A DNA stretch of 46,722 nucleotides. Source: Gemmatimonadaceae bacterium (GTDB taxonomy: Bacteria; Gemmatimonadota; Gemmatimonadetes; Gemmatimonadales; Gemmatimonadaceae). The stretch is taken from positions 1 to 46,722 of the forward strand of contig WYBP01000015.1 of the NCBI GenBank assembly GCA_011525845.1, read 5' to 3'. Below are positions 1 to 42,816 of this stretch, piece after piece. Made by a program: the position numbers and the translations under genes. Every line of letters starts with the position of its first letter. Positions within the stretch are counted from its first letter, which is position 1. The notes under the pieces are model-generated. The model was not told the origin of the DNA. It saw only the letters and a program-made list of their open reading frames with translations, and ran no database searches.

Positions 1-562
<562 letters not shown>

Positions 563-579
563 GTGTTCAATCGACTCTA

Positions 580-622
580 CCGAATCGCTGTCACGCTGTC
601 ATCGCATGACAGCGTTATTCGG
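580..622 (-). other. rRNA leader hairpin upstream of 16S
   Basis: The transcribed leader just upstream of the 16S 5' end contains a long imperfect inverted repeat. The outer arms are CCGAAT and ATTCGG, and the inner arms are CGCTGTCAT and ATGACAGCG around a 3-base loop. Its place, about 18 bases before the mature 5' end, suits a leader-folding or RNase III processing stem. The role is inferred; the symmetry is visible directly. Confidence 0.5.
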
Positions 623-702
623 AATCACAAAAATTGTTCAGGTCTGAACTCTCCCCCAGCCCCTGAATGGACCAGGATCATAGAGTTCGCCTCGCACACT
701 TT

Positions 703-730
703 GCGATATCTCTCTCAACTCGATTGTCAA
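703..730 (-). promoter_or_regulatory. Candidate second (proximal) rRNA promoter
   Basis: A perfect -35 hexamer TTGACA (725-730, minus) is followed after 16 bases by TATCGC (703-708). The -10 box is weak. It lies between the strong upstream promoter and 16S, matching the common tandem P1/P2 layout of rRNA operons. A TATGAT at 677-682 is a better -10 box but has no good -35 partner. Confidence 0.4.
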
Positions 731-774
731 TCAGCGTTGTTTCGCTCCGCCCATGATTTCCGGGGGAGCCTATA

Positions 775-803
775 AGAATACCCTGGAGAACCGAACGTGT
801 CAA
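775..803 (-). promoter_or_regulatory. Main rRNA operon promoter (P1)
   Basis: TTGACA (798-803, minus) is separated by exactly 17 bases from TATTCT (775-780). The bases after the -10 box are GC-rich (GGCTCCC), like the discriminator of stringently controlled rRNA promoters. Transcription would start near 768 and run leftward into 16S. No other gene start is close, so the assignment to the rRNA operon is firm; the stringent control is inferred. Confidence 0.75.
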
Positions 804-950
804 GGGCCTACTTCAACTTCTTGCCCAGACTCACAACCAGGCCTCGCAGCCCGGCGATCCTCCCGCTCCCCACGACTTCGCAGGGAGAAACGAATAGTAA
901 TGGCACCTTTCGGTGCACGCAAGGGTGACCCCGCTCACCTGCACCACCAC

Positions 951-979
951 AAGAAAAAAGCCCCGACGATCGCCGGGAC
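951..979 (-). terminator. Intrinsic terminator after the Pro-Arg-Lys tRNA cluster
   Basis: On the minus strand an 8-pair stem GTCCCGGC / GTCGGGGC (two G-U pairs) with a GATC loop is followed at once by six T residues. It lies about 47 bases beyond the 3' end of tRNA-Lys and before the rRNA promoter, so it would insulate the rRNA operon from the tRNA transcript. Confidence 0.8.
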
Positions 980-1025
980 TCATCCCTGCTTCACCCGTCA
1001 CCCTGCTCACGCCAACTTCGAACAA

Positions 1026-1098
1026 TGCGCCCTGAAGGAATCGAACCTTCAACCTAGTGATTAAGAGTCACTTGCTCTGCCAATTGAGCTAAGGGCGC
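1026..1098 (-). tRNA. tRNA-Lys (anticodon CTT)
   Basis: A 73-base cloverleaf reads on the minus strand. The acceptor stem is GCGCCCT / AGGGCGC and the anticodon stem AGTGA / TCACT encloses loop CTCTTAA, so the anticodon is CTT. The T-loop is TTCGATT. The discriminator is A and CCA is not encoded. It is the last of three clustered tRNAs before an intrinsic terminator. Confidence 0.95.
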
Positions 1099-1142
1099 TC
1101 ATGCCTGCTCGTTCCTTCTCGTTCCTGCTCCGTCCCGCGAGG

Positions 1143-1216
1143 CGCGCCAGGAGGGACTCGAACCCCCGACCCACAGCTTAGAAGGCTGTTGCTCTATCCA
1201 CCTGAGCTACTGGCGC
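1143..1216 (-). tRNA. tRNA-Arg (anticodon TCT)
   Basis: A 74-base cloverleaf reads on the minus strand. The acceptor stem is GCGCCAG / CTGGCGC, the anticodon stem ACAGC / GCTGT encloses loop CTTCTAA, so the anticodon is TCT, which reads AGA/AGG. The discriminator is G and CCA is not encoded. It is the middle tRNA of the Pro-Arg-Lys cluster. Confidence 0.95.
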
Positions 1217-1323
1217 TTCGTTGCGTGCCGTGTCGCTCCTGCTCCCGCCGATCCACCCGGTGCGCACCGCGTCGCACGATGCACATCGCACCAGCGCTGC
1301 GCCCCCATCCCTTCGCGACCCGA

Positions 1324-1397
1324 TCGGGGCGGCCGGATTCGAACCGGCGACCTCCTGCTCCCAAAGCAGGCGCGATACCGGGCTACGCTACGCCCCG
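1324..1397 (-). tRNA. tRNA-Pro (anticodon TGG)
   Basis: A 74-base cloverleaf reads on the minus strand. The acceptor stem is CGGGGCG / CGCCCCG, the anticodon stem CCTGC / GCAGG encloses loop TTTGGGA, so the anticodon is TGG. The T-loop is TTCGAAT. The gene starts 37 bases after the rdgB stop codon, so the cluster may be read from the rdgB transcript. Confidence 0.95.
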
Positions 1398-1434
1398 CGA
1401 ACCGAACGAACACTAGTCGGCACCGCGCCGCTGG

Positions 1435-7846: not shown

Positions 7847-9520
7847 CTAGAAAAGCCCCGAGATGGAGCCGTCAGGGTGGATGGCCATCTTCTCGGCCGC
7901 GGGGGCCTTCGGGAGTCCCGGCATCGTCATCACCTCGCCGCACTGCGCGACGATGAAGCCCGCGCCCGCCACCGGATACACCTCGTTCACGGTCAGGCGG
8001 AAGCCGGTCGGCCGGCCGAGCTTCGTCGCGTCGTCGGAGAGCGAGTACTGCGTCTTGGCCATGCAGATGGGGGTCTCGCCGAGCCCGATGGACTCGAGGT
8101 ACTTGATCGCGCGCTCGGCCTTGGCGCTGTAGTCCGCGCCCTCGCCGCCATACACCTTCTGCACGATGGTGTCGATCTTCTCGCGGATCGGCTTCTTCAC
8201 GTCGTAGATCGGCGCGAAGTCCGACTTCCCCTCCGCGAGGATCGCGAGCACCTCGCGCGCCAGGGTCTCGCCGCCGGCGCCCCCCTTGGCGAAGACCTCG
8301 CAGAGCGCCACGCGCGCGCCGGCCTTCTCGGCGGCCTTGCGGACGATCTCGAGCTCGGCGTCGGTGTCGGTGCCGAAGCGGTTGATCGCCACCACGAGGC
8401 GCATCCCGAACTGCCGCACGTTGGCGATGTGGTGCTCGAGGTTCACGACCCCCTTCTGGAGCGCCTTGAGGTCCTCCTTCGCGAGCTCGGTCTTGGCAGC
8501 GCCGCCGTTCATCTTGAGCGCGCGGATGGTCGCGACGACCACCGCGGCCTCGGGCTTGAGCCCGCCGAAGCGGCACTTGATGTCGAAGAACTTCTCGGCG
8601 CCGAGGTCGGAGCCGAATCCCGCCTCGGTGACGACCACGTCGCCCACCGCGAGCGCGGCGCGGGTGGCGAGGATGGAGTTGCACCCGTGCGCGATGTTGC
8701 CGAACGGGCCCGCGTGCACGAAGGCCGGCCCGCCCTCGAGCGTCTGCACGAGGTTGGGGCGGATCGCGTCCTTGAGCAGCAGGGCCATCGCGCCGTTCGC
8801 CTTGAGGTCGCGCGCGCGAATGGGCTTCCGGTCGGCGCCATAGGTGGCGCCGACGATGATGTTGCCGAGCCGTTCCTCGAGGTCGCTCGCGCTGGTGGCG
8901 AGCGCGACGACCGCCATGATCTCCGACGCGGGGACGATCACGAAGCGCTCCTCGCGCACCACGCCTTCGGAGGGGCCGCCGAGCCCGATCACGACCTTCC
9001 GGAGCGCGCGGTCGTTCATGTCGATCGTGCGCGGCCAGGTGATGCGGCGGGGGTCGATGTTGAGCGCGTTCCCCTGCTGCAGGTGGTTGTCGAGCATCGC
9101 CGAGAGGAGGGCGTGCGCGGAGGCGATGGCGTGGAAGTCGCCCGTGAAGTGCAGGTTGATGTCGTCCATCGGGAGCACCTGCGCGTAGCCGCCGCCGGCC
9201 GCGCCCCCCTTCACGCCGAACACGGGACCGAGCGAGGGCTCGCGGATGCAGAGCACCGCGTTGGTGCCGATCTTCCGCAGCGCCTGGGCGAGTCCCACCG
9301 AGGTGGTGGTCTTCCCCTCACCGGCCGCCGTCGGGTTGATGGCGGTGACGACCACCAGCTTCCCCTTCGGCTTCCGCGTGGTGAGCTCGAGCGAGACCTT
9401 CGCCTTGTACTTCCCGTACAGGTCGATCTCGTCGGGGGAGAGGCCGATGTCGGCGGCCACGTCGGTGATGGGGCGCAGGCGCGCGGCCTGGGCGATCTCG
9501 ATGTCGGATGGGACGGTCAT
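7847..9520 (-). CDS. fhs: Formate-tetrahydrofolate ligase
   Basis: Fhs makes 10-formyl-tetrahydrofolate from formate, THF and ATP. The start at 9520 gives MTVPSDIEIAQAARLRPI, the classic N terminus, and 557 residues, the usual length. The open frame runs further upstream by lack of stops, but that part shadows tatD and is not coding. The P-loop is PTAAGEGKTTTSVGLAQAL, followed by REPSLGPVFGVKGGAAGGGY and the FTGDFHAI motif. A GAGGA Shine-Dalgarno lies about 15 bases before the ATG. It sits between tatD and ridA, all on one strand, probably co-transcribed. Confidence 0.96.
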   Translation of the reverse strand: MTVPSDIEIAQAARLRPITDVAADIGLSPDEIDLYGKYKAKVSLELTTRKPKGKLVVVTAINPTAAGEGKTTTSVGLAQALRKIGTNAVLCIREPSLGPVFGVKGGAAGGGYAQVLPMDDINLHFTGDFHAIASAHALLSAMLDNHLQQGNALNIDPRRITWPRTIDMNDRALRKVVIGLGGPSEGVVREERFVIVPASEIMAVVALATSASDLEERLGNIIVGATYGADRKPIRARDLKANGAMALLLKDAIRPNLVQTLEGGPAFVHAGPFGNIAHGCNSILATRAALAVGDVVVTEAGFGSDLGAEKFFDIKCRFGGLKPEAAVVVATIRALKMNGGAAKTELAKEDLKALQKGVVNLEHHIANVRQFGMRLVVAINRFGTDTDAELEIVRKAAEKAGARVALCEVFAKGGAGGETLAREVLAILAEGKSDFAPIYDVKKPIREKIDTIVQKVYGGEGADYSAKAERAIKYLESIGLGETPICMAKTQYSLSDDATKLGRPTGFRLTVNEVYPVAGAGFIVAQCGEVMTMPGLPKAPAAEKMAIHPDGSISGLF

Positions 9521-34605: not shown

Positions 34606-35430
34606 GTGCGGGGGTGGACGCTCGGGAGCGGGAGCTCCGGCAACGCCCTTCTCATAGAAAGCGGTGCGCATCGCCTCCTCGTGGACTGCGGGTTCGGCCC
34701 GCGCGCGCTCGCCACGCGGCTCAAGGCCATCGGCGTGGCGCCGGAGTCGATCAGCGGGCTCCTCATCACGCACGAGCACGTGGACCACGCGCAGGGGGCC
34801 GAGCGTGCGCAGCACAAGTGGCGCTGGCCCGTGTACGCCTCGGCCGGCACGCTCGCCGCGCTCCCCGGGGTGACCGCGCGCTGGCGCCGGCCGCTCGTGG
34901 CGGGCACGCCACTCACGATCGACGGCTTCACGCTCGAGGCCGTGAGCATACCGCACGACGCGGCGGGGCCGTTCGGGTACGCAATCACCGCGACGGCTTC
35001 GGGTGCGCGCGTGGCCGTGGCGCACGACCTCGGCGCCGTGCCCGACGCGCTCCGCCGCGCCTTCACGCAGTGCGACGTGCTCTGCCTCGAGGCGAACCAC
35101 GACGTGGAGATGCTGCGCAACGGCCCCTACCCCTGGCACCTGCAGCAGCGGATCCGCGGAGGGCGCGGGCACCTGAGCAACGCGCAGGGAGGCGCGCTCG
35201 CGGCCGAGCTCGCGGGGCCGTCGCTGCGCGCGGTGGTGCTCCTCCACCTGAGCGAGACGAACAACACGCCGGCGCTGGCCGAGCGCGACGTGACCGCGGC
35301 GCTGCGGCGCACGAAGTACCGCGGGCCCGTGACCGCCGCGCCGCGGCGCGTGCCGGCGCCGGCGTTCGCGCTCGACGGTGCGCGGATGGCCGAGGCGCGG
35401 CGGAGCGAGCAGCTCACGCTCGGCGTCTGA
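34606..35430 (+). CDS. MBL-fold metallo-hydrolase, WalJ/YycJ-like
   Basis: A metallo-beta-lactamase-fold protein of 274 residues starting at GTG 34606, one base after the upstream stop. It begins with the family's LGSGSSGNALLIESG, then VDCGFGPRAL, the metal motif THEHVDHAQG and GPFGYAITA. VAHDLGAV and CLEANHD supply later metal ligands, and LLHLSETNNTPALA comes near the end. WalJ proteins are implicated as 5'-3' exonucleases in cell-cycle coordination; other MBL hydrolases remain possible. Confidence 0.88.
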   Translation: MRGWTLGSGSSGNALLIESGAHRLLVDCGFGPRALATRLKAIGVAPESISGLLITHEHVDHAQGAERAQHKWRWPVYASAGTLAALPGVTARWRRPLVAGTPLTIDGFTLEAVSIPHDAAGPFGYAITATASGARVAVAHDLGAVPDALRRAFTQCDVLCLEANHDVEMLRNGPYPWHLQQRIRGGRGHLSNAQGGALAAELAGPSLRAVVLLHLSETNNTPALAERDVTAALRRTKYRGPVTAAPRRVPAPAFALDGARMAEARRSEQLTLGV

Positions 35431-35476
35431 CCGGCGACGCTTCCCTCCCCCCGCCTCGCCCCCTAACGTTCGCGCG

Positions 35477-36106
35477 ATGGAGAGCATCGAGAAGCTGATC
35501 GCGAACAACCGCGCCTGGGCGGACGCCCTCAAGGCGCGCGACCCCGAGTTCTTCGCCAAGCGCGAGAACGACCAGGCGCCGCACTTCCTGATGATCGGCT
35601 GCTCGGACAGCCGCGTGCCCCTCGAGGTGATGACCGGCGCGCTCCCCGGGGACATGTTCGTCCACCGGAACATCGGGAACCAGGTCTACGCGACCGACTT
35701 CAACGTGCTCTCGGTGATCCAGTTCGCGGTGCAGGTGCTCCGGGTGGAGCACATCATCGTCTGCGGGCACTCGAACTGCGGCGCGCTGCGGGCGGCCGAG
35801 CAGCCCGCCGGGATGGGGATCCTAGACCACTGGATCGCGGGGGTGCGGAACACCATCCGGCGGCACCGCGGCGAGCTCGACGGGTGCGGCTCGGAGGACG
35901 AGCGGCTGCGGCGCCTCTCGGAGCTCAACGTGCTGCAGCAGGTGGGCGCGCTGAGCCGCACTCCCACGGTGCTCGACGCCTGGTCCACCGGGAAGCGTCC
36001 GCTCCTCCACGGCTGGGTGTACGACATCGGCACCGGGCACCTGGACAAGGTGGTGGAGGCGATCGACGGCGTGGAGCGCGCGACGGCGCTCCTCCCCACC
36101 GGCTGA
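35477..36106 (+). CDS. can: Beta-class carbonic anhydrase
   Basis: The enzyme interconverts CO2 and bicarbonate in the cytoplasm. The 209 residues contain the beta-class zinc set Cys42, His98 and Cys101 with the Asp44-Arg46 dyad: IGCSDSRVPLE and CGHSNCGALRAA. The start ATG 35477 is preceded by TAACGT seven bases upstream, a possible -10 box for a leaderless transcript. It converges on sbtB-sbtA, so all three genes for inorganic carbon lie together on facing strands. Confidence 0.95.
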   Translation: MESIEKLIANNRAWADALKARDPEFFAKRENDQAPHFLMIGCSDSRVPLEVMTGALPGDMFVHRNIGNQVYATDFNVLSVIQFAVQVLRVEHIIVCGHSNCGALRAAEQPAGMGILDHWIAGVRNTIRRHRGELDGCGSEDERLRRLSELNVLQQVGALSRTPTVLDAWSTGKRPLLHGWVYDIGTGHLDKVVEAIDGVERATALLPTG

Positions 36107-36169
36107 CGCGGCACCGGCCGCAGCATCGGCAGCGGCATCGGCCGCGCCGCCGCTCGGCGGTGCCCCGCC

Positions 36170-36475
36170 CTAGAACTTCTCCGGCCGCTGCACGTCGACG
36201 TCCTCGACGAACATGATCATCGCGTAGTTGTCGTAGTACCGCTCGCGCATCGCCGTGGCGATCGCGTCGGCGGTCTCGGCCGTGCAGACGATGTCGATCC
36301 GGATGTTCGCGGTGAGGTCGAACCCCGCGTTGCGCACGCCGCGCGAGCCCTTCCCCCGCACGTCGGTGACGGTGTAGCCGTGCGCGCCGAGCTTCTCGAG
36401 CTCCACGAGGAGGGAGCGTTCGAGCGAGGCCTCGGTGACGATCGTGACGAGCTTGCGCTTCTCCATCATCGCCAT
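36170..36475 (-). CDS. sbtB: PII-like carbon-sensing protein SbtB
   Basis: A PII-fold protein of about 101 residues (KLVTIVTEASLERSLLVELEKLGAHGYTV, read in parts; then DVRGKGSRGVRNAGFDL as T-loop region and IRIDIVC). Immediately downstream of sbtA, it is best called SbtB, which in cyanobacteria binds cAMP/AMP/ADP and controls SbtA. The C terminus ends QRPEKF with no Cys pair, so the redox R-loop of cyanobacterial SbtB is absent. The uridylylated Tyr of GlnB-type PII is also absent. The start is ATG 36475 or GTG 36484, the latter overlapping the sbtA stop. Confidence 0.85.
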   Translation of the reverse strand: MAMMEKRKLVTIVTEASLERSLLVELEKLGAHGYTVTDVRGKGSRGVRNAGFDLTANIRIDIVCTAETADAIATAMRERYYDNYAMIMFVEDVDVQRPEKF

Positions 36476-36480
36476 GGCGG

Positions 36481-37428
36481 TCACCCTCCGAGGGTGTGGA
36501 GGTATTCGGCGAGGCGGAGGTAGAGCGGGATCCCCACCAGGATGTTGAACGGGAAGGTCACGCCGAGCGAGGCGGCGAGGGAGAGGGTCGGGTTCGCCTC
36601 GGGCACCGACATGCGCATCGCGGCCGGCACCGCGATGTAGGAGGCGCTCGCGATGAGCGTGGCGAGCATCGCCGTGCCGCCGAGCGAGAGGCCGAGGAGG
36701 AGCCCGACCGTGCCGCCGATCACCGCGCCCACGAGCGGCATCCCGATCCCGAACGCCACCAGGAAGACGCCATGCTTGCGCAGGCTTCCCACCTGCCCCG
36801 CCGCGAGGAGCCCCATCTCCAGGAGGAAGAGGGCGAGGACGCCCTTGAAGAGTCCCATGAAGAGGGGCTCGATGGGCTGCACGCCGACCGGGCCCGCGAT
36901 CCACCCGATGGCGAGCCCGCCGAGGAGGAGCACCACGCTCTTGCCGAGGATCACCTCGCGGGCGAGCTCACCCCACTTGGTGCCGCCCCCCACGCCGCGC
37001 GCGAGGAGGATGCCGACGACGATGGCCGGCATCTCGAGGAGGACGAGGAGCACCGGCATGTACTGCTCGAACTCCACCTGCTGGAAGGCGAGGTAGGCCA
37101 CCGCGACCGCGTAGGTGCCGACGCTCACCGAGCCATAGTGCGCCGCGATTGATGCCGCGTCGGGGCGCTTGAGGCGCCCCACGTAGCGGAGCACCGGGTA
37201 GGCGAGGAGCGGGAGGAGGAGCCCGATGAGGAGCACCGCCCCCACCTGCGGGAGGATCCCGAGGGGTGACTGGTTCGCGAGCTCCACCCCGCCCTTCAGC
37301 CCGATGGCGAGGAGGAGGAGGATCGTGAGGAAGTCGTAGATCGCCGGCGGGAGCCGCAGCTCCGTCCGCGCAATTCCCGCCGTAAGCCCCAGCAGGAAGA
37401 AGAGAACGACCGGATCGAGTGTACGCAT
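36481..37428 (-). CDS. sbtA: Sodium-dependent bicarbonate transporter SbtA family
   Basis: A 315-residue membrane protein of about ten helices. The first reads LDPVVLFFLLGLTAGI, followed by ELRLPPAIYDFLTILLLLAIGLKGGVEL (in parts), the SbtA N-terminal hallmark. The motif AAHYGSVSVGTYAVAVAYL and the C-terminal repeat SASYIAVPAAMRMSVPEANP are the two inverted core segments that bind bicarbonate and sodium in SbtA. Length is slightly below the cyanobacterial ~370, because the central cytosolic loop is short. It is paired with sbtB. Confidence 0.92.
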   Translation of the reverse strand: MRTLDPVVLFFLLGLTAGIARTELRLPPAIYDFLTILLLLAIGLKGGVELANQSPLGILPQVGAVLLIGLLLPLLAYPVLRYVGRLKRPDAASIAAHYGSVSVGTYAVAVAYLAFQQVEFEQYMPVLLVLLEMPAIVVGILLARGVGGGTKWGELAREVILGKSVVLLLGGLAIGWIAGPVGVQPIEPLFMGLFKGVLALFLLEMGLLAAGQVGSLRKHGVFLVAFGIGMPLVGAVIGGTVGLLLGLSLGGTAMLATLIASASYIAVPAAMRMSVPEANPTLSLAASLGVTFPFNILVGIPLYLRLAEYLHTLGG

Positions 37429-37552: not shown

Positions 37553-39537
<1,985 letters not shown>

Positions 39538-40067: not shown

Positions 40068-40763
40068 GTGATGCGTTCTACCACGCGTGAGGTCGACGAT
40101 TCAACTACTTGGCCGATGAGAGAGTCTGAGCTCAACGCACGATTCGTAAAGTTCCTCGTTGAGGAGCGCGGCTTCCCCCGCGTTACAATCGCGTTTCCTG
40201 TTTCGCTGAACTTCGATGTACGGCCGGACCTCGGCATTGTTGATCCGACTACGCGTGCCATCCTCGCAGTCGTGGAGTACAAGGTGCCGCCCGACGCTCT
40301 GGCCGAGCCAACCGAGCGGTACAGCGGCGTTGGCATTCGACTCAAAGCCGCGTTGCCACGACCGGAGATTCCGGTCTATCTGGTCATGCCTGGTCCCGCG
40401 CCGTACGATTTTGCCGTGTGGACGCTGAGCGAAGACGCCGGTTGGACGCAGGTCGCGCACGTCGACTTTCCCTCGTACGAGGCGCTGGTCAATCTCGCGG
40501 TCACGACGTTCATCGAGCGCACGCGAAGTCGCCGAGAAAGCAACGTCGCGACAATCGAACAGACCGGAGCATGGTTAGCCCTTCTTGCAGGCGAACTACT
40601 TGTGCTAGCCGTCGCGGGGTGGTGGTCGCCGACGTGGCAGGTCCTTGCGCTGGCGGGAGCCTTCGGTGCGCTCGTTCTTTATCCTCAGTTCACAAGGATT
40701 AAGGTCGCTGGAATCGAGCTTGAGCGCGCCACTGATCGCGGCACGCTGCCTCCAGCGGAGTGA
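40068..40763 (+). CDS. Putative membrane-anchored PD-(D/E)XK nuclease-like protein
   Basis: The 231 residues have two parts. Residues about 17-140 resemble the N-terminal nuclease domain of type I restriction HsdR proteins (HSDR_N type): ELNARFVKFLVEERGFPRV, then NFDVRPDLGIVD and AILAVVEYK. Pro53-Asp54 and Glu70-x-Lys72 form a good PD-(D/E)XK core. Residues about 167-208 form two hydrophobic segments (WLALLAGELLVLAVAGWW and WQVLALAGAFGALVLYP), so the protein is predicted to sit in the membrane with the nuclease-like domain in the cytoplasm. A second start (ATG 40116) fits the domain edge better. No exact family is recognised. It lies 143 bases before the Septu-like pair, same strand, same lower-GC composition. 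Confidence 0.7.
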   Translation: MMRSTTREVDDSTTWPMRESELNARFVKFLVEERGFPRVTIAFPVSLNFDVRPDLGIVDPTTRAILAVVEYKVPPDALAEPTERYSGVGIRLKAALPRPEIPVYLVMPGPAPYDFAVWTLSEDAGWTQVAHVDFPSYEALVNLAVTTFIERTRSRRESNVATIEQTGAWLALLAGELLVLAVAGWWSPTWQVLALAGAFGALVLYPQFTRIKVAGIELERATDRGTLPPAE

Positions 40764-40906
40764 TGAGCGTTCCCGCGAGCGAGCGGCGCTTAGCGACTGA
40801 CGGCTGGGCGACGAAAGCGGCGGCGGGGCCGCCACGTCCAGTTTGAACGGCCGCAGCAGACTGACGTTAGACCGATACTGACGAATTAATCCGGGGCCAC
40901 ACACTG

Positions 40907-42148
40907 ATGTTCGACTCGCTCAGCATCCACAATTGGCGGCAGTTCTCTCGCGTCAACGTGACGTTCCACCCGCGCCTCACCGTTCTGACCGGCGCGAACG
41001 GGAGCGGAAAGACCACCCTGCTGCAGCTTCTTAACAGGCACTGGGGATGGAACTCGCAGTTCGTCAGCACCCCGCGTTTTGACAGGAAGGGAGTTCGGAC
41101 CTACTGGACTGGCTTCTGGGAAGGCTTCGACGAGGACGTGAACACTCACGCAGCCAGGAGCTCGGCCTATGAAGATATTGGCCGTCTGACATACTCCGAT
41201 GGCCGATCCTCCCGGCTAAGAATACCGCAGGGATCGCACGAAAAGTACGAAGTCCAGATCGATGGGATGCCACAGATCCAGGGCGTATTCGTGCCGTCGC
41301 ACCGCTCGCCGTACGTGTATCAGCGCGTTGAGCAGATACCGACCGTTCTCGATGCGAAAGAACAGATCTTCCAAACGTATCTGAACGAGCTAATGGCTCG
41401 CTTTAGCACAGGTGGACGCACACAGTCGCCCAGCTTTCGCATCAAAACATCACTGATCTCGCTTGCAACGTTCGGCTACGGCAATCAGGCGGTTCAAGCG
41501 AACCCGGACGCGATTCGGACGTTCGAAGGATTCGAGGACGTCCTGCGACGTGTGCTACCGGACTCGCTCGGCTTCAGGCGCTTGGTTGTGCGCGTTCCGG
41601 ATGTCATCCTCGACACTTCAACGGGAGACTTTTCTTTCGATGCCGTCTCAGGCGGTATCGCTGCAATCATCGACCTTGCGTGGCAGATCTACATGTATCG
41701 CCAGCTCCACGAGCGATTCGTTGTCGTGATCGATGAACCTGAGACGCACCTTCACCCCGCGCTCCAGCAGCGCCTACTACCCGACATGATTGCGGCGTTC
41801 CCGTCTTGCCAGTTCATCGTGGCGACCCACAACCCGTTCATGGTTGCCTCGGTGCCAGACGCAAACGTCTTCGTCTTTACTTATAGTGACGCACGAAGGG
41901 TTGAGAGTGCCCGCCTTGAGCAAGTGAACATGGCCGGAACTCCAGACGAGATCCTTCGGACCGTTCTCGGGGTTCCGTCTACCAGCCCCCGATGGGCAAC
42001 TGAGCGACTTCAGCAGATTCTGAAGCACATCGAGGCGAATCCGATAACCTCAGAGAGCCTAGAGGGACTGCGCGCTCAGATGACGGACATCGGACTCCAG
42101 CACCTCTTCCCCAGCACAGTGGCACGGGTGCTCGAGGAACATGAATGA
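40907..42148 (+). CDS. ptuA: Septu-like PtuA ATPase (AAA/ABC-type, RecF/OLD-like)
   Basis: The 413-residue ATPase starts MFDSLSIHNWRQFSRVNVTF, typical of SMC/RecF-like AAA proteins. Walker A is GANGSGKTT (29-37), a signature-like SGGIAAIIDLAW lies near 248-259, Walker B is VVVIDEPETHLHP (about 272-284, Asp276-Glu277) and the switch His is in ATHNP (306-310). The middle part is a helical insertion. No TOPRIM domain is visible, unlike OLD nucleases, so cleavage would come from a partner. The stop overlaps the start of an HNH-nuclease gene (ATGA), the defining pair of Septu anti-phage systems. A TTGAAC (40843-40848) with TTAGAC 18 bases on is a weak promoter. Confidence 0.8.
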   Translation: MFDSLSIHNWRQFSRVNVTFHPRLTVLTGANGSGKTTLLQLLNRHWGWNSQFVSTPRFDRKGVRTYWTGFWEGFDEDVNTHAARSSAYEDIGRLTYSDGRSSRLRIPQGSHEKYEVQIDGMPQIQGVFVPSHRSPYVYQRVEQIPTVLDAKEQIFQTYLNELMARFSTGGRTQSPSFRIKTSLISLATFGYGNQAVQANPDAIRTFEGFEDVLRRVLPDSLGFRRLVVRVPDVILDTSTGDFSFDAVSGGIAAIIDLAWQIYMYRQLHERFVVVIDEPETHLHPALQQRLLPDMIAAFPSCQFIVATHNPFMVASVPDANVFVFTYSDARRVESARLEQVNMAGTPDEILRTVLGVPSTSPRWATERLQQILKHIEANPITSESLEGLRAQMTDIGLQHLFPSTVARVLEEHE

Positions 42149-42816
42149 TCGCGCTCAGGAAGATGGCGCCGCCCGAGATCTTGGCCACCAAGGGTCCTGA
42201 GTGGACAGCCGAATACCTAGCTGCGAAGACCGCCGGGGAGCCAGTCTCGGACACCGTCCGCTTTCGGTACCGCCATGCTGCCGTGAAGGCAACCCTTCAC
42301 GAGGAGACGCACTCAAAATGCGCCTATTGCGAGACGCGCGTCTCGGTCGGCGAGACGGACCATATACTTCCGGTTAAGGAGCGCCCTGAGTTGATCTGCG
42401 TGTGGGAGAACTTGGCACTGTGCTGTAAAGAGTGTAACCGCGCGAAAGGTCCCTACTACAGCGCGTCGGAACCTCTCATCAATCCATTCGTGGACGATCC
42501 CGATCGGCACTTGCTGTTCTTCGGACCACTCGTACTCCATAGGAGCGGCGACGACAAAGGCATGCGTACTACGGTCCGCCTGGAACTATCGCGCCCCGAC
42601 CTTATCGAACGTCGCTCGCGACGGATCAATGACCTGATGCCGCTCGTCGATCGCTGGAAGGTGCACGAGGAAGGTGAGACCAAGAAACTGCTTTGGCAGC
42701 TAATTCTGAAGGAGGCAGCGGACGATTCTGAGTACGCCGCTACGGTGCGGGCCTATCTCTTCAGCGAGTTTGGTGTTCGTGTCCCGTCGGAACCTGACAA
42801 TCGCGCCGCAGCCTAG
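42145..42816 (+). CDS. ptuB: Septu-like PtuB HNH endonuclease
   Basis: A 223-residue HNH nuclease. The zinc/active site reads CAYCE (Cys59, Cys62), then TDHILPVKERPE (Asp72-His73), VWENLALCCKECNRAKG (Trp87, Asn89, Cys94, Cys97, Asn98, Lys101). This C-x2-C, DH, W-x-N, C-x2-C-N layout is that of the HNH proteins paired with PtuA in Septu and with retron Ec78. The C-terminal half (LELSRPDLIERRSRRINDL) resembles the helical tail of that family. In Septu, PtuA and PtuB form a complex that degrades nucleic acid on infection. The four-base overlap with ptuA supports a fixed stoichiometric pair. Confidence 0.8.
   Translation: MIALRKMAPPEILATKGPEWTAEYLAAKTAGEPVSDTVRFRYRHAAVKATLHEETHSKCAYCETRVSVGETDHILPVKERPELICVWENLALCCKECNRAKGPYYSASEPLINPFVDDPDRHLLFFGPLVLHRSGDDKGMRTTVRLELSRPDLIERRSRRINDLMPLVDRWKVHEEGETKKLLWQLILKEAADDSEYAATVRAYLFSEFGVRVPSEPDNRAAA

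What the first reader, a model, noticed from the sequence alone, without database searches (positions are those of the whole stretch)
40068..42816. Septu-like anti-phage pair with an upstream membrane PD-(D/E)XK protein: a possible three-gene variant
Seen: an AAA/ABC-type ATPase with full Walker A/B and switch His overlaps by four bases an HNH nuclease with C-x2-C, DH, W-x-N and C-x2-C-N elements. Known: this pair defines Septu (PtuA/PtuB). New here: 143 bases upstream, same strand and composition, is a protein joining an HsdR-N-like PD-(D/E)XK domain to two membrane helices. If functionally linked, the system would couple two nucleases, one at the membrane, to one ATPase sensor. The gap and separate promoter possibility keep the link open.
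Basis: partly seen in the sequence, partly recalled or inferred. Interest (0 to 1): 0.78.

Follow-up and report, generated by a model that had tools for sequence, protein, structure and literature searches.

The report
Septu beside separate integron cassette gene
A normal two-gene anti-phage system (Septu) sits next to a gene for a membrane-anchored nuclease-like protein, but a leftover integron recombination site lies between them, so they look like independently acquired cargo rather than a three-gene system.

Summary
ptuA (40907-42148) and ptuB (42145-42816) match PADLOC PtuA/PtuB models at 2.8e-157 and 2e-62, with catalytic residues intact. Gene 1 (40068-40763) is predicted to be a PD-(D/E)XK nuclease fold plus two long C-terminal helices, at least one strongly hydrophobic.

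The three-gene reading is not supported. The 143-bp gap holds an integron attC site (40777-40874). A covariance model trained without this copy finds it at 52.3 bits, E=1.6e-11 genome-wide. The same repeat recurs at about 27 other places in this genome, which also encodes an integron integrase. The only clear homologue of gene 1 (32% identity, another genus of the family) is itself an integron cassette with an attC at its stop codon, and an unrelated cassette follows it, not ptuAB. All seven other relatives of this PtuA examined have ptuB next door and none has gene 1.

So this is ordinary two-gene Septu beside an independent, unfamiliar membrane-nuclease cassette, in a partly decayed remnant near groES. 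The 3' end of ptuB has only a weak attC-like palindrome, so ptuAB's own cassette origin is likely but unproven. Integrons as stores of defence genes are already established.

The parts
40068..40763 (+). Gene 1: PD-(D/E)XK-fold nuclease domain (about residues 17-150) plus two long C-terminal helices (137-183, 190-225), a predicted membrane hairpin; start GTG 40068 or ATG 40116
   Evidence: ORF; no family hit; AF2 model and structural matches to PD-(D/E)XK nucleases; conserved PD...ExK; hydropathy peak at residues 165-188
40777..40874 (+). Integron attC site downstream of gene 1; R' box GTTAGAC (40866-40872) fits GTTRRRY, R'' box degenerate (GCGAGC in place of YYYAAC)
   Evidence: Repeat found; aligned; covariance model built without it hits at 52.3 bits, E 7.8e-13 over 175 kb and 1.6e-11 genome-wide
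40907..42148 (+). ptuA: ABC-type ATPase of Septu, 413 aa
   Evidence: PADLOC PDLC00290 PtuA 2.8e-157; invariant ATPase motifs
42145..42816 (+). ptuB: HNH nuclease of Septu, 223 aa
   Evidence: PADLOC PDLC00337 PtuB 2e-62; Pfam HNH 2.1e-7; invariant HNH/Cys residues
42811..42945 (+). Candidate decayed attC at the ptuB stop (GCCTAGC ... GTAGGGC, inner palindrome ACGGTTGCTGCT/AGCAGCAATCGT); not demonstrated
   Evidence: Inverted repeat; palindrome score reached by 8-25% of random positions; only a chance-level hit in the attC model
39229..39537 (-). groES, native left flank; homology to congeneric genomes stops at about 39640, just upstream of it
   Evidence: Translation; comparison with same-genus groES loci

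Best explanation
The locus is integron-derived cargo. Gene 1 is the gene of one integron cassette, ending in the attC at 40777-40874. ptuAB is a standard two-gene Septu system lying directly beyond that attC, most likely as a second cassette that begins at the crossover point (40866/40867), 40 bp before the ptuA start codon. The pair was probably put into the groES-side intergenic region by the genome's own integron integrase, away from its main cassette arrays, and the sites have since decayed. PtuAB would act as Septu does elsewhere: a PtuA ATPase complex senses infection and releases PtuB nuclease activity (tRNA-Tyr cleavage was shown for an E. coli Septu, PMC13096335). Gene 1 would act on its own as a membrane-tethered nuclease of unknown target, possibly defensive. 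Shown: the families, the attC, the other arrays and integrase, and the independent cassette status of the homologue. Inferred: cassette status of ptuAB, the insertion route, and all activities.
For: The attC model, trained on 14 other copies, finds the gap at E 1.6e-11 genome-wide and finds 28 sites at E<=0.01 in six contigs. The array on C21/C3 is a real integron: cassette start and end are complementary over 9-11 nt in 15 of 19 consecutive cassettes tested, and an IntI gene scores 389 bits against a cutoff of 265. The gene 1 homologue (L013:8720-9397, minus) has an attC at its stop codon (30.6 bits, E 2.2e-6), starts just after a GTTAGGCC core, and is followed by a 238-aa cassette with an 11-nt matched start/end. 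PtuA relatives L091-L096 and L050 all have ptuB adjacent and none has gene 1. G+C is 0.58-0.62 over 40-43 kb against about 0.71 around it.
Against: The R'' box of the window attC is degenerate, and the site folds no better than shuffles as a single strand. No significant attC follows ptuB, and none was found upstream of gene 1. The start/end complementarity expected for an intact ptuAB cassette is only 5 of 7 (GTCTAAC expected, GCCTAGC found). Congeneric genomes differ right of groES, so no empty site could be read.
Confidence: 0.86

Rival explanations
1. A true three-gene Septu variant: the membrane PD-(D/E)XK protein is an accessory effector or membrane anchor of PtuAB.
For: Same strand, 143-bp gap, shared lower G+C. 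Gene 1 is nuclease-like and has membrane helices.
Against: attC between them. The homologue is an independent cassette without ptuAB. 0 of 7 other PtuA relatives have gene 1. No co-occurrence elsewhere in 395 genomes of the phylum.
Confidence: 0.05
2. Only gene 1 arrived as an integron cassette and landed upstream of an already resident ptuAB; ptuAB itself was never a cassette.
For: Only one significant attC in the islet. The ptuB 3' palindrome is not significant. The same-genus ptuAB in G004 (40% identity) shows no attC and lies in a different, non-cassette locus.
Against: ptuA starts 34 bp after the attC core, as cassette genes do, and ptuB's stop codon lies inside an RYYYAAC-like GCCTAGC. 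Such features are typical of cassettes but can occur by chance.
Confidence: 0.25
3. Two neighbouring cassettes that are co-transcribed and selected together as a small defence island, without being one machine.
For: Same orientation and short spacing. Integron arrays are known stores of anti-phage genes (Darracq 2025, Kieffer 2025 and Getz 2025, as cited in PMC12444791). This genome's own array carries a PADLOC PD-Lambda-3_B protein.
Against: No expression data. Gene 1 has no defence-family hit.
Confidence: 0.3

Closest known systems
Septu (PtuA/PtuB), PADLOC PtuA1/PtuB1 models PDLC00290 and PDLC00337
   Same: ABC ATPase overlapping an HNH nuclease, full-length model matches, intact catalytic residues
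   Different: Nothing in ptuAB itself; the extra upstream gene is not part of Septu in relatives
Integron gene cassettes (ORF plus attC) and cassette clusters without a nearby integrase
   Same: attC with GTTRRRY core directly after gene 1; the same attC family in arrays of the same genome; an integron integrase in the genome
   Different: Only one confident attC here (the CALIN definition needs two), its R'' box is degenerate, and it is on a different contig from the integrase
Integron-borne anti-phage genes of Vibrio, Xanthomonas and mobile integrons (PMC12444791 and works cited there)
   Same: A defence gene next to an integron recombination site
   Different: Here Septu, in a lone decayed remnant in another bacterial group; cassette status of ptuAB unproven
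PD-(D/E)XK nuclease domains (BsaXI/BpuSI nuclease domain, archaeal Hjc, SPARDA nuclease subunit)
   Same: Fold and PD...ExK motif of gene 1's N-terminal domain
   Different: Gene 1 adds two C-terminal helices predicted to be membrane-embedded and has no detectable sequence family

Membership tests
Septu | PtuA: ABC-type ATPase matching PtuA models with intact motifs | tested here: met
   PDLC00290 2.8e-157; invariant motifs
Septu | PtuB: HNH nuclease adjacent to ptuA | tested here: met
   PDLC00337 2e-62; 4-base overlap; invariant residues
Septu | Anti-phage activity | not testable with these tools
   Needs plaque assays
Three-gene Septu variant | Gene 1 recurs next to ptuAB | tested here: not met
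   0 of 7 PtuA relatives; the one gene 1 homologue lacks ptuAB
Integron cassette (gene 1) | attC immediately after the gene with a GTTRRRY R' box | tested here: met
   GTTAGAC at 40866-40872; model hit E 1.6e-11
Integron cassette (gene 1) | RYYYAAC R'' box and foldable imperfect hairpin (intact, active site) | tested here: not met
   R'' degenerate (GCGAGC); fold not better than shuffles: a decayed site, so attC by descent but not an intact one
Integron cassette (gene 1 family) | Homologue found as a cassette in another genome | tested here: met
   L013:8720-9397 with attC at 8612-8726
Integron cassette (ptuAB) | Own attC at the 3' end | tested here: inconclusive
   GCCTAGC at the stop plus a palindrome, not significant
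CALIN | At least two attC sites without a nearby integrase | tested here: not met
   Only one significant attC
PD-(D/E)XK nuclease superfamily (gene 1) | Fold and catalytic PD...ExK motif | tested here: met
   VIA-align Z up to 8.9 to BsaXI, several PD-(D/E)XK families on top; D54, E70, K72 conserved in the homologue. Foldseek alone gave no E<=0.001
PD-(D/E)XK nuclease superfamily (gene 1) | Nuclease activity | not testable with these tools
   Needs biochemistry

The most novel reading that the evidence does not exclude
Gene 1 is the founding member of an unrecognised family of membrane-anchored PD-(D/E)XK nucleases that travel as integron cassettes and act as stand-alone defence effectors, and Septu itself moves as an integron cassette in this lineage.
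Probability: 0.25. Interest if true: 0.5.

Novelty: new member of a known kind. Interest (0 to 1): 0.3.

Why it matters
It removes a false lead (a three-gene Septu) and shows how the gap sequence, not only the genes, decides whether neighbours form a system. It also adds a possible Septu-carrying integron remnant, and a rare membrane-nuclease cassette gene, to the growing evidence that integrons store anti-phage genes.

Tried and rejected
Homologues of gene 1: none by pattern scans of genome contigs and viral contigs or by tblastn in plasmids and phages. One clear homologue in 395 genomes of the phylum and no more in 288 of the order with a two-row profile. A weak second hit (G132, 33% over 77 aa, in a 525-aa protein) was not pursued.

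A first hand-made attC scan with strict boxes found nothing because it demanded intact boxes; the repeat was found by comparing the gap DNA with the genome. Single-strand folding of the window attC was no better than shuffles. The palindrome at the ptuB 3' end was tested against random positions and judged not significant. An upstream boundary near GTTGCGC (about 39982) was considered and dropped (6.2 bits, E 0.85).

An empty site was sought in congeneric groES loci; the right flanks differ in all of them, so none could be read. Rfam found nothing in the islet.

Full report
Observation. Gene 2 is PtuA (PADLOC PDLC00290, 2.8e-157, aligned end to end) and gene 3 is PtuB (PDLC00337, 2e-62). They are distant from the retron-linked PtuA/PtuB models of NCBIfam, well below those cut-offs. 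Walker A, Walker B, the switch histidine and the HNH/Cys residues are invariant across the window and seven relatives. Gene 1 hits no Pfam, PADLOC or NCBIfam family. Its AlphaFold2 model, made from two sequences (mean pLDDT 70; nuclease part mostly 80-90), gives PD-(D/E)XK nucleases as best structural matches: BsaXI Z 8.9, Hjc 8.7, BpuSI 8.6, with SPARDA nuclease subunits lower. Foldseek alone gave only E about 0.02. D54, E70 and K72 are conserved in its homologue. Two long helices follow, the first with a hydrophobic peak at residues 165-188.

What lies in the gap. Comparing the 146 bases between gene 1 and ptuA with the window's own genome returned a repeat present many times: C21:188-200 kb, C3:0-4 kb, C19, C14 and C5. 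Aligned, these copies are attC sites. They have RYYYAAC and GTTRRRY ends, and paired L boxes with unpaired extra bases (GCTTGGTGACTGACGGCC against GGCCGCAGCACAAGC). Consecutive cassettes show the integron hallmark: the first bases of a cassette are complementary to its last bases over 9-11 nt in 15 of 19 cases tested. The genome encodes an integron integrase (TIGR02249, 389 bits, cut-off 265) at C12:347-1279, at a contig end. The arrays at C21 and C3 also run to contig ends, so the main integron is probably broken across contigs.

The window's copy. A covariance model built from 14 attC sites, without the window's, finds window 40777-40874 at 52.3 bits: E 7.8e-13 over 175 kb and 1.6e-11 over the genome. 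Its R' box GTTAGAC (40866-40872) fits the consensus GTTRRRY given in PMC12901181. Its R'' box is degenerate, and the strand does not fold better than shuffles. It is therefore an attC by descent, probably weak or inactive now. ptuA starts 34 bp after the core.

Independence of gene 1. In 395 genomes of the phylum one clear homologue was found (G047, 32% identity, E 1.4e-12). It begins just after a GTTAGGCC core, ends with its stop codon at an attC (L013:8612-8726, minus strand, 30.6 bits, E 2.2e-6), and is followed by a 238-aa membrane protein that is again a cassette. No ptuAB is there. In the other direction, six PtuA relatives from a scan of 84,980 genomes and one same-genus relative all have ptuB adjacent and none has a gene 1 homologue.

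Is ptuAB a cassette too? Probably, but this is not shown. At its 3' end, GCCTAGC overlaps the stop codon, and a 12-nt palindrome lies 98 nt apart. However, such a palindrome score is reached at 8-25% of other positions, and the attC model gives only chance scores there. With one confident attC the locus does not meet the usual two-site definition of a CALIN (PMC12444791). Off-target insertion by an integrase elsewhere in the genome is one proposed origin of such elements (PMC8618304), and attG insertion is a known route (Loot 2024, cited in PMC12901181). That route is inferred here, not shown.

Mechanism. PtuAB most likely works as Septu does elsewhere. In an E. coli Septu both the ATPase and the HNH residues are required, and tRNA-Tyr is cut in the variable loop during infection (PMC13096335). 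Target and trigger here are unknown. Gene 1 most likely cuts nucleic acid at the membrane on its own. That is inference from fold and topology.

Novelty. Integrons as libraries of anti-phage genes are established (Darracq, Kieffer and Getz 2025, as cited in PMC12444791). No held paper described an integron-borne Septu among those listed (only some were opened), but that library is incomplete. The finding becomes a new member of a known kind, with a rare uncharacterised cassette protein as its most interesting part.

Noticed in passing
L060 (C21:181000-199966), L061 (C3:1-8000), L062 (C19), L064 (C5), L009:347-1279 (intI): A sizeable integron (about 27 attC sites besides the window's) is split over several contig ends of this genome, with the integrase gene on yet another contig end.
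   Followed up: partly
L060:12704-13585 (minus): A cassette in the main array encodes a PADLOC PD-Lambda-3_B protein (9e-90; Pfam Hypoth_Ymh), so the array carries another candidate defence gene.
   Followed up: no
L060:9358-11190 (minus): A 611-aa protein with a Pfam Beta-lactamase (serine hydrolase) domain (4.1e-49) lies between two attC sites; not necessarily a resistance gene.
   Followed up: no
window 35378-37428: An SbtA-type bicarbonate transporter (Pfam Sbt_1, 4.4e-113), a PII-like small protein reading frame and a carbonic-anhydrase-like ORF lie together: a possible bicarbonate-uptake cluster. The last two were judged by eye only.
   Followed up: no
L050:7578-9460 (minus): A congeneric genome (G004) carries a different ptuAB pair (PtuA 39-40% identical) at an unrelated locus beside a large helicase-like gene, suggesting separate acquisition of Septu in the genus.
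   Followed up: partly
window 1-1400: The window starts at a contig end with what looks like the 5' part of a 16S rRNA gene (minus strand), followed by tRNA-like sequences; judged by eye.
   Followed up: no
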